Positions 22,592 to 25,315 of a stretch of 34,726 nt of DNA are shown piece after piece. Within the stretch, counting starts at the first letter, position 1, and every line of letters starts with the position of its first letter. Made by a program: the position numbers and the translations under genes. Location of the stretch: assembly GCA_000990445.1 (NCBI GenBank), contig LBTJ01000012.1, positions 1-34,726 of the forward strand. The letters are read 5' to 3'. The notes beneath the pieces are model-generated. The model was not told where the DNA came from. It did not search any database and saw nothing but the letters and a program-made list of their open reading frames with translations. Source of the DNA: Candidatus Roizmanbacteria bacterium GW2011_GWA2_37_7 (GTDB taxonomy: Bacteria > Patescibacteriota > Microgenomatia > UBA1406 > GWC2-37-13).

Positions 22592-22618
22592 TTGCTTAAT
22601 AAATATTTTTGTTACAAT
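22592..22618 (+). promoter_or_regulatory. weak candidate promoter TTGCTT-15-TACAAT, close to methyltransferase ATG
   Basis: ATG at 22625, about 6 nt downstream of the -10. Confidence 0.35.
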
Positions 22619-22624
22619 ATAAAT

Positions 22625-24202
22625 ATGAATCAGAATTTAGTATCTATTGACGAAGCAAGTAAATGGGCTACAGATTATTTATTCAAAGACATCTCCTCCT
22701 CTAACATTTCATATTTGATACAGTATGGAAAGGTCAAAAAATATAGTGGGCATGGAAGTACTTATGTAAATATTGAAGATTTGAAGAATTACTATAAATC
22801 TTATAATGGCTATCGCGAAATAAAATGGAAAGAGAAATTGGGACAAGATTTAAACTGGAGACTCTCGTTTGACCATCTAAAGGAAAAGGACACAACAAAA
22901 CATGTTCATAGGCTTCATCCATATAAAGGCAAATTTATTCCCCAGTTAGTTGAATATTTTATTGACGATCATACAGATGATATTAAGAAGCAGTTATATT
23001 TTAAGAAAGGAGATATAATTTTAGATCCATTTGTAGGTTCTGGAACCACGCTAATTCAAGCTAATGAGTTAGGAATTCACTCAATTGGAATTGACGTATC
23101 TCGATTTAATTGTTTGATAAGCGAAGTAAAGCTTAACGATTACGACTTTATTTCTTTAGAGAAGGATATCAGTCATTTTATATACAAAATCACAAATTAT
23201 GAATCTAACAGAAATATTCATAGTTTTGAAAAGGAGCTTTATGATAATCTTTATGAATTTAATACAAAATTTTTTCCGTCTCCTGACTATAAATATAATT
23301 TAAATAATAAAACAATCAACGAAGATGAATATGTAAAAGCAAAAGAGTTTGAATTTCAGAATATCTATAATAATTTAGTGATAAAACATAATATTAAACT
23401 AAAACAGACAAAAGGAAAGACGTTTTTAGATAATTGGTATATAGATAATGTACGAAACGAGATAGATTATTCTTTGGGTTTGATAAAAAAAATTAAAGAA
23501 ATCAGAAATAAAAAAGCTATTGCAGTGATTCTTAGTAGAACTATCAGGTCATGTCGAGCCACTACTCATTCAGACCTGGCAACATTAAAAGAACCTCAAC
23601 TTACAACATATTATTGCTACAAGCACAAAAAAATTTGCAAACCATTATACTCAATAAAATATTGGTTAACAAGATATGCAAATGATACAATTTTAAGACT
23701 AAAAAAGTACAAAAGTATAAAAAATAATGCAAAAAGTACAATTATTACTGCAGATTCAAGAACTGTCGATATCGAAAAAGAATTAATAAAACGTAATAAA
23801 TTATTATTTGAAATATATAAAAAACAAAAAATTAGCGGAATTTTTACGTCACCACCATATGTAGGTCAAATAGATTACCACGAACAGCACGCATATGCTT
23901 ACGATTTATTTGGTTTTGAAAGAAAAGATGAATTTGAGATAGGCCCTCTTTATAAAGGTCAAGGTGTGGAAGCAAGAGAATCTTATGTTGAGGGAATTTC
24001 TCATGTGCTATTAAACTGTAAAAAATTTTTTTCAAATGATCCAAACATTTTTCTTGTAGCAAATGATAAATATAATTTATATCCTAAAATTGCTCAAAGA
24101 TCCGGACTAAGAATTATTGATAGGTTTAAGCGGCCAGTATTGAATAGAACTGAAAGAGACAAATCGCCTTACTCAGAGACTATTTTTAATTTAAAATATT
24201 AA
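22625..24202 (+). CDS. site-specific DNA methyltransferase (N4-cytosine/N6-adenine type) with N-terminal HTH-like segment
   Basis: LDPFVGSGTTLIQANELGIHSIGIDVS; GIFTSPPYVGQIDYHEQHAYAYDLFG; ATG at 22625. Confidence 0.9.
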   Translation: MNQNLVSIDEASKWATDYLFKDISSSNISYLIQYGKVKKYSGHGSTYVNIEDLKNYYKSYNGYREIKWKEKLGQDLNWRLSFDHLKEKDTTKHVHRLHPYKGKFIPQLVEYFIDDHTDDIKKQLYFKKGDIILDPFVGSGTTLIQANELGIHSIGIDVSRFNCLISEVKLNDYDFISLEKDISHFIYKITNYESNRNIHSFEKELYDNLYEFNTKFFPSPDYKYNLNNKTINEDEYVKAKEFEFQNIYNNLVIKHNIKLKQTKGKTFLDNWYIDNVRNEIDYSLGLIKKIKEIRNKKAIAVILSRTIRSCRATTHSDLATLKEPQLTTYYCYKHKKICKPLYSIKYWLTRYANDTILRLKKYKSIKNNAKSTIITADSRTVDIEKELIKRNKLLFEIYKKQKISGIFTSPPYVGQIDYHEQHAYAYDLFGFERKDEFEIGPLYKGQGVEARESYVEGISHVLLNCKKFFSNDPNIFLVANDKYNLYPKIAQRSGLRIIDRFKRPVLNRTERDKSPYSETIFNLKY

Positions 24203-24206
24203 CATA

Positions 24207-25022
24207 ATGCTTTCTGACGAACAAAAAAATAGAATTTCAGAAGTTATCAAAAAGATATTACTATCAAGCTTAAGGAAGTTTCCTAAGGTTGATCAGCAAA
24301 ATAGAAATGCTCCATTCCATGATATTATCTTAAAAACCTTTGAAAAAGAATTGCAGCATGTCAATATATCAACGCCTTACTTACTAGCAATTTCAAGTTG
24401 GCTTCATGGGTTAAGTACCTCGATGGGCAGTAGTTATGAATCATTAGTACATATACTTTCCGGCGGATATAAAAGGAAGTTTACTGCAGCATTTACTTTA
24501 AAAGTAAAAGTTTCACAAGCTAGTACTATTGAAAATATTATTCGGGAGCTAAAAGCTGGAAATAAAGTCAGACTTCCAAATACATCAGTAGAGAATAGGT
24601 TGATCTTTAAATTTAAATCTAATGAAAAAGAGATAAATGCTTTAGAATTTACAGTTGATAATTATATTGAAACAAAAAAATATATTGAGGGAATAGAACT
24701 CAAATCAGTGAGACCAAATTCAGGTGAGGGCCGTGGAGAGAAGCAAAAAATCTTATATGCAAAGGCCGCGTTTAAAAAATTACATCCCACAAAAGAAATT
24801 AAGTATTACGTAGGATTTCCATTTGATCCGACATCTAATGATGCAGTATCTTTTAATAAAGAAAGATTTTTTAATTATCTTATTGAATTTAAGAAATTTT
24901 TTAGTCCTGAAGAAGTATTGATAGCTTCTGAATTATGGGATCATCTTTCAGGACATTCCCATACAATGGATGAAATTTTTGAAATAATTACGAAAACAAT
25001 AGAGAAGGTAAATAGAAGATAA
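24207..25022 (+). CDS. putative type II restriction endonuclease (PD-(D/E)XK-like; possibly TdeIII-like)
   Basis: immediately follows methyltransferase; FTVDNYIETKKYIEGIELKSVRPNSGEGRGEKQKILYAKA. Confidence 0.65.
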   Translation: MLSDEQKNRISEVIKKILLSSLRKFPKVDQQNRNAPFHDIILKTFEKELQHVNISTPYLLAISSWLHGLSTSMGSSYESLVHILSGGYKRKFTAAFTLKVKVSQASTIENIIRELKAGNKVRLPNTSVENRLIFKFKSNEKEINALEFTVDNYIETKKYIEGIELKSVRPNSGEGRGEKQKILYAKAAFKKLHPTKEIKYYVGFPFDPTSNDAVSFNKERFFNYLIEFKKFFSPEEVLIASELWDHLSGHSHTMDEIFEIITKTIEKVNRR

Positions 25023-25034
25023 TCCTAATTTTTG

Positions 25035-25228
25035 CCACACTTTTCCATAAAGTGTGGATAGAAGAGCTTTGTGACAATCTACACCCACACTTTACCCACA
25101 TTGTGTGGATAAAAAACCGTTGTGACGGTCTAAACAATTTTTTAGCCCACACTTTACCCACACTTTGAAAAGTATGGATAAAATAGCTTTGCAACAACCC
25201 GTATCCACACTGTTTTTCAAAGTGTGGA
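25035..25228. repeat. cluster of DnaA-box-like 9-mers arranged in inverted repeats/hairpins
   Basis: TGTGGATAA (perfect box) at 25104-25112; 8/9 matches at 25053-25061, 25092-25100, 25154-25162, 25173-25181, 25201-25209; hairpins 25035-25057 and 25204-25228. Confidence 0.75.
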
Positions 25229-25315
25229 GAATATTTTGTGCCCCACACCGAGGATCGGTTTGTGTTTCAATTATTCACTTGCAGGAGGTTGCAGATTCTT
25301 AGGATATAATATGCT

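What the first reader, a model, noticed from the sequence alone, without database searches (positions are those of the whole stretch)
25035..25228. Noncoding cluster of DnaA-box-like sequences arranged as hairpins
About 190 bp contain one perfect DnaA box (TGTGGATAA = TTATCCACA) and five 8/9 matches on both strands, several paired as inverted repeats (e.g. TTACCCACA-TTG-TGTGGATAA; CCACACTTT-TCCAT-AAAGTGTGG). They occur in diverged repeat units with a recurring (A/G)GCTTTGTGACAA-like tail. It may be an origin-like or DnaA-titration (datA-like) site, an origin remnant of an integrated element, or a clade-specific intergenic repeat family that mimics DnaA boxes. All flanking genes run the same way and dnaA is not nearby, which argues against the main oriC.
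Basis: partly seen in the sequence, partly recalled or inferred. Interest (0 to 1): 0.7.

Follow-up and report, generated by a model that had tools for sequence, protein, structure and literature searches.

The report
Dispersed hairpin repeat mimicking DnaA boxes
This 215-base noncoding stretch is one of three copies of a dispersed hairpin repeat, probably spread by a small IS200-type (RAYT) transposase, and its likeness to the binding sites of the replication initiator DnaA is most likely a by-product of the hairpin sequence and not a replication control site.

Summary
In detail: one perfect and six 8/9 DnaA-box matches lie in 180 bp (at most 3 in any of 200 simulated windows). But the DnaA box is not the conserved feature. 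The block, 25035-25249, is a noncoding repeat of four hairpin units (CCACACTTT..AAAGTGTGG), three followed by a tail like GCTTTGTGACAATCTAMA. Two more whole copies (89%, 86% identical) lie on other contigs of the genome, in both orientations relative to genes. dnaA, with its own inverted DnaA boxes, lies elsewhere. A unit model found units in related genomes that keep the tail but whose hairpins are no longer DnaA boxes (e.g. GTACACTTCGGAAGTGTAC). In one relative, two such units form a 44-nt inverted repeat around a RAYT-type Y1 transposase gene. A same-genus genome has a two-copy, 387-bp counterpart built of TTGTGG boxes. Best reading: a non-autonomous repeat of the RAYT/"TIRtron" kind that mimics DnaA boxes. 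DnaA binding was not testable and could exist as a side effect. No RAYT gene flanked by this exact hairpin was found in the 85%-complete genome, so the mobilising enzyme is inferred.

The parts
25035..25249 (+). whole repeat block, about 215 bp, noncoding; two further whole copies at G000:C22:7684-7898(-) and G000:C59:3458-3671(-)
25035..25057 (.). unit 1 hairpin CCACACTTT-TCCAT-AAAGTGTGG
   Evidence: DNA folding z = -3.8
25069..25083 (+). unit 1 tail TTGTGACAATCTACA, one mismatch from the tail found in related genomes (TTGTGACAATCTAAA)
25085..25108 (.). unit 2 hairpin CCACAC..GTGTGG
25104..25112 (-). the only perfect DnaA-box match (TTATCCACA), made of the hairpin foot plus the A-rich spacer
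25120..25134 (+). unit 2 tail TTGTGACGGTCTAAA; with its left neighbours it forms the small palindrome CCGT-TGTG-ACGG, which is CTGT-TGTG-ACAG in the C22 copy
25147..25177 (.). unit 3: CCACACTTTACCCACACTTT..AAGTATGG (longer, imperfect; the other two copies read AAAGTGTGG)
25189..25203 (+). unit 3 diverged tail TTGCAACAACCCGTA
25205..25227 (.). unit 4 hairpin CCACACTGTTTTTCAAAGTGTGG, no recognisable tail
   Evidence: z = -4.1
25243..25248 (+). terminal partial box CCACAC, last part shared by all three copies

Best explanation
The stretch is a dispersed, noncoding, non-autonomous repeat made of head-to-tail units, each a hairpin followed by a short spacer and (in three of four) a tail close to GCTTTGTGACAATCTAMA. 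In a related genome, units of this plan are the terminal inverted repeats of a RAYT-type (Y1/IS200-like, HUH) transposase gene. The most likely mechanism is that such a transposase recognises the single-stranded hairpin and tail and copied or moved the block to several intergenic sites. The DnaA-box likeness arises where the hairpin foot GTGTGG meets an A-rich spacer (ATAA). Shown: three copies, unit structure, shared tail, absence of the DnaA box in relatives' units, a RAYT gene flanked by such units in one relative. Inferred: that a RAYT moved this particular block, and that DnaA binding is not its role.
For: Three copies with common ends, in intergenic sites and both orientations relative to genes; none found by nucleotide search in 36 relatives, six of them congeneric. 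At the NadM-like gene beside the C22 copy, congeneric G004 has no such block. Between the copies the CCACAC/GTGTGG hexamers are nearly invariant (1 of 60 positions varies against 39 of 155 elsewhere, Fisher P = 1e-5). The unit model R1 found, in relatives, hairpin plus tail TTGTGACAATCTAAA with different hairpins. In G028 two such units are a 44-nt, 91% complementary inverted repeat, 758 nt apart, around a 233-aa Y1_Tnp protein, and a third unit lies elsewhere on that contig. A model built only from relatives' units (R2) scores all three own copies at about 20 bits, E about 0.005-0.007. The own genome holds five Y1_Tnp genes, one of them 40% identical to the G028 RAYT and itself flanked by inverted hairpins. 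Congeneric G001 has a two-copy, 387-bp, 91% identical noncoding block of TTGTGG boxes with GGGCTTTGGGACAATGTAAA-like tails.
Against: No RAYT gene flanked by the CCACACTTT hairpin was found in the own genome (about 15% of which is missing). No target-site duplication could be recognised at the three copies. The link to the RAYT-flanking units rests on a 15-nt tail plus a partly shared stem (ACACTT/AAGTGT), with a spacer about 4 nt longer here, and the R2 scores are modest. Only one RAYT flanked by tail-bearing units was seen. Constraint on the hexamers could also mean another binding protein.
Confidence: 0.68

Rival explanations
1. A mobile, MITE-like noncoding element moved by some other transposase or recombinase that binds the arrayed GTGTGG boxes (multiple end-binding sites), with the tail an accidental or separately retained part.
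For: Whole-block dispersal with sharp ends in both orientations; many identical boxes per block; the congeneric G001 block of 387 bp with ten TTGTGG/CCACAA boxes has the same style. Two related phage contigs carry tandem CCACACTTTACCCACACTTT near an integrase gene and a tRNA-like end, showing that such boxes can sit in a recombination site.
Against: No clean terminal inverted repeats or target duplications; no transposase or integrase gene recognised beside any of the three copies; does not explain the shared tail around a RAYT in G028.
Confidence: 0.14
2. A DnaA-binding cluster with a role in replication control (datA-like titration site or secondary origin).
For: Seven box-like 9-mers in 180 bp, far above chance; each of the three copies keeps one perfect TTATCCACA; the host dnaA has TTATCCACA and TTGTCCACA just upstream, so its DnaA probably reads this sequence.
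Against: The perfect box sits at a different place in the C59 copy; the ATAA half of the box varies between copies while GTGTGG hardly does; homologous units in relatives differ from the box at 3-6 of 9 positions (2 in the congeneric G001); the block is absent by nucleotide search from relatives that must also control replication; dnaA and an oriC-like pair of boxes lie on another contig.
Confidence: 0.08
3. An array of binding sites for another DNA-binding protein, or a transcribed RNA of tandem hairpins (including a TIGR-type guide array).
For: Hexamers constrained beyond the rest of the block; three of four units fold well; a Candidatus Daviesbacteria contig has eight AGTGTGG motifs in about 110 bp between genes.
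Against: No Rfam family reaches its gathering score; the three copies are near-identical with no variable guide-like spacers and no Nop-domain gene was recognised among the ten window proteins scanned (partial check); the block lies in either orientation relative to its neighbours; only one base pair with two-sided change in the alignment fold.
Confidence: 0.1

Closest known systems
TIR repeats of TIRtrons: RAYT-like (TIRYT) transposase genes flanked by long terminal inverted repeats, with dispersed TIR families (PMC3733652)
   Same: Units like this one flank a Y1/RAYT gene as an inverted pair in a related genome; the paper describes TIRs that are partly self-complementary and whose dispersed copies form dimers or clusters.
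   Different: The own block is a head-to-tail array dispersed as a 215-bp whole, low copy number (three), with no matching transposase gene seen in the own assembly.
REP / BIME / REPIN elements with RAYT (PMC3116915, PMC2817692; abstracts only)
   Same: Short intergenic palindromes, often clustered, linked to Y1 transposases; a GTAG-tagged example is also present in this genome around the C44 Y1 gene.
   Different: No GTAG tag at the hairpin foot here; a 15-nt tail instead; three copies, where REPs usually exceed a hundred; same-direction units.
datA / DARS / oriC DnaA-box clusters of E. coli (PMC4585315, PMC12371093; abstracts only)
   Same: Noncoding cluster of several DnaA-box-like 9-mers.
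   Different: Multi-copy; box not conserved in homologous units; binding untested.
MITEs
   Same: Noncoding, 70-300 bp, dispersed next to genes, palindromic.
   Different: No clear terminal inverted repeats or target-site duplications.

Membership tests
RAYT/TIRYT-associated TIR repeat | the same repeat unit flanks a Y1/RAYT gene as an inverted pair | tested here: inconclusive
   Met for the homologous unit in relative G028 (44 nt, 91% complementary, around a 233-aa Y1_Tnp protein). Not seen for the exact own hairpin: the stretches around the five own Y1 genes show no similarity to the block.
RAYT/TIRYT-associated TIR repeat | dispersed copies away from the transposase gene | tested here: met
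   Three copies in the own genome; extra unit at G028:C23:7201-7243.
RAYT/TIRYT-associated TIR repeat | host encodes a RAYT-type transposase | tested here: met
   Five Y1_Tnp matches; the C37 protein is 40% identical to the G028 RAYT.
GTAG-tagged REP | GTAG tetranucleotide at one hairpin foot | tested here: not met
   Not in the units; present in a different repeat at C44.
datA-like / origin DnaA-box cluster | cluster of DnaA boxes above chance | tested here: met
datA-like / origin DnaA-box cluster | boxes conserved in homologous loci | tested here: not met
   Units in relatives keep hairpin and tail but differ from the box at 2-6 of 9 positions.
datA-like / origin DnaA-box cluster | DnaA binding, effect on initiation | not testable with these tools
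   needs a binding assay or marker-frequency data
main chromosomal oriC | next to dnaA, AT-rich region with DnaA boxes | tested here: not met
   dnaA-dnaN and an inverted pair of boxes are on another contig, C1:32912-35517.
MITE | terminal inverted repeats and target-site duplication | tested here: not met
   Ends compared for three copies; no duplication seen.
TIGR array | adjacent Tas (Nop-domain) gene and variable spacers | tested here: not met
   Copies near-identical, no variable spacers; Pfam scan of ten window proteins, including both neighbours, found no Nop domain.

The most novel reading that the evidence does not exclude
A fast-evolving recognition code: in this bacterial family a transposase-linked repeat keeps its tail (TTGTGACAATCTAAA) while its hairpin box changes from species to species (GTGTGG, TTGTGG, GTGTAC, GTTGAC), and in this species the box has drifted onto the DnaA box so that the dispersed copies now act as DnaA sinks.
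Probability: 0.08. Interest if true: 0.65.

Novelty: new variant of a known kind. Interest (0 to 1): 0.36.

Why it matters
It warns that clusters of DnaA-box-like 9-mers in small, poorly studied genomes can be palindromic mobile repeats and not origins, which matters for origin prediction. It also extends RAYT/TIR-type repeats, with a conserved tail and a changing hairpin, to a group of very small bacterial genomes, where the pairing of transposase and hairpin across species could be used to study recognition.

Tried and rejected
Phage and plasmid collections: no similarity. Rfam: only sub-threshold matches to unrelated families. Pattern scan for the exact palindrome in GTDB genomes: mostly isolated single hairpins that look like terminators; only the Candidatus Daviesbacteria contig had an array. 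Direct AAGTGTGG pairs in 281 class members: no further arrays. Integrase arm-type sites: a 20-nt match in two related phage contigs near integrase genes, but a follow-up pattern found nothing and no integrase gene lies by the block; left as a lead. Viral contigs with the tail motif: eight matches without hairpins, taken as chance. DNA-uptake sequence: AAGTGTGG occurs only 40 times in the genome, about half of them in the three blocks. TIGR arrays: considered after a paper search and rejected.

Full report
Observation. The cluster is real. One perfect and six 8/9 matches to TTATCCACA lie between 25053 and 25231; 200 Markov simulations of the window never gave more than 3 in 195 bp. The stated inverted repeats and the recurring tail are present. 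The block is noncoding, between a TdeIII-type restriction endonuclease gene and a glycosyltransferase gene.

The block is repeated. The window is contig C12 of a 962,621-bp, 79-contig genome estimated 85% complete. Two more copies, 89% and 86% identical over about 215 bp, are on C22 and C59. The ends agree: all three begin at CCACACTTT and end near CCCCACAC. All are intergenic (in C22 the end overlaps the last codons of a NadM-like gene), and the block runs in the same direction as its neighbour genes at C12 and C59 but opposite at C22. No target-site duplication is seen. It was not found by nucleotide search in 36 relatives including six of the same genus, nor in phage or plasmid collections. 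The congeneric G004 keeps the NadM-like gene but not the block.

What is conserved is not the DnaA box. The block is built of four units: hairpin CCACAC..GTGTGG, an A-rich spacer, and in three units a tail. Among the three copies the hexamers CCACAC/GTGTGG vary at 1 of 60 positions and the rest at 39 of 155 (Fisher P = 1e-5). The DnaA box TGTGGATAA is the hexamer's last five letters plus spacer letters ATAA, and the third of these varies in two units. Each copy has one perfect box, but in C59 it is at another place. The three copies are related by descent, so these counts are not independent evidence of selection in three places.

The host has its own dnaA. dnaA and dnaN lie at C1:32912-35517, with TTATCCACA and TTGTCCACA as an inverted pair just upstream of the likely dnaA start. 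This is the likely oriC region; it was not tested by skew or read depth.

Relatives reveal the family. A covariance model of nine units (R1) was searched in 116 relatives. Besides the nine own units it found weak matches, several of which have the tail TTGTGACAATCTAAA, or one or two letters off it, 7-9 nt after a perfect or near-perfect hairpin: GTACACTTCGGAAGTGTAC in G013, GTACACTTCGGGTGTGTAC in G028, a hairpin around CTCCGAAG in G041, GTCAACCTCGGGGGTTGAC in G005, and others in G314 and G023. Not every R1 match is of this kind; several had the tail without a hairpin and are left out as possible chance. The feet of the G013, G028, G041 and G005 hairpins differ from the DnaA box at 3-6 of 9 positions. 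Simulated sequences with the block's own dinucleotide make-up reach one mismatch to the tail in 2 of 4000, without asking for the hairpin in front. A second model built only from the relatives' units (R2) scores all three own copies at about 20 bits, E 0.005-0.007 over 180 kb; since those units had been found with R1, this is supporting and not independent evidence.

Link to a transposase. In G028 two units (L092:699-742 and 1501-1544, 44 nt, 91% complementary) enclose a 233-aa protein with a Y1_Tnp domain and the motif MPNHFHF, with another unit elsewhere on the contig. The flanking inverted repeat was found independently of the model by the repeat finder. This fits the published TIRtron plan, in which RAYT-like genes are flanked by long terminal inverted repeats that can also occur as dispersed families in dimers or clusters (PMC3733652). 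The own genome has five Y1_Tnp genes. One, at C37, is 40% identical to the G028 protein and lies between inverted CGCACCTCGGGGGTGCG hairpins without the tail. None is flanked by the CCACACTTT hairpin, so the enzyme that spread the block is one of these acting at a distance, one in the missing part of the genome, or lost.

A congeneric counterpart. G001 has a 387-bp noncoding block in two copies, 91% identical, holding ten TTGTGG/CCACAA boxes and tails GGGCTTTGGGACAATGTAAA and GGCTTTAGGACAGTCTAAA. Thus the box changes (GTGTGG to TTGTGG) while the style and tail persist. A Candidatus Daviesbacteria contig has an array of eight AGTGTGG motifs in about 110 bp, at one place in its genome and without the tail; whether it is related is open.

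Verdict. Its own refutation test for the origin/datA idea, dispersed copies across intergenic regions, is met in a small way (three copies). The mechanism, mobilisation by a RAYT-type transposase, is inferred from relatives.

Noticed in passing
G000:C44 (L087:958-2000): A Y1_Tnp gene (163 aa) and a neighbouring 144-aa ORF are bracketed by GTAGTGACAACTCTAGAGTTGTCACTAC palindromes, with a similar one inside the Y1 gene: a GTAG-tagged REP arrangement.
   Followed up: partly
G000:C61 (L085:1266-2010): A 234-aa RAYT-like gene has AGGGTCAGACCCT-type palindromes before, after and inside the coding sequence.
   Followed up: no
L016:6830-6965 (JAKFWZ010000006.1, Candidatus Daviesbacteria): Array of eight AGTGTGG/CCACACT motifs on both strands in an intergenic stretch between divergent genes, one perfect DnaA box among them.
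   Followed up: partly
L009:12800-12820 (G000:C1:44799-44819): Inverted pair ATATCCACA-ACG-TGTGGATAA in an AT-rich stretch about 9 kb from dnaA; possible second DnaA-box pair.
   Followed up: no
L088:2149-2168 and L089:3821-3840 (viral contigs): Tandem CCACACTTTACCCACACTTT near a tRNA-like end and a tyrosine-integrase-like gene; possible integrase arm-type sites.
   Followed up: partly
window 22592-25022: Type II restriction-modification pair: N6/N4 DNA methylase (536 aa) and TdeIII-type endonuclease (271 aa), in a stretch of lower GC (0.31).
   Followed up: no
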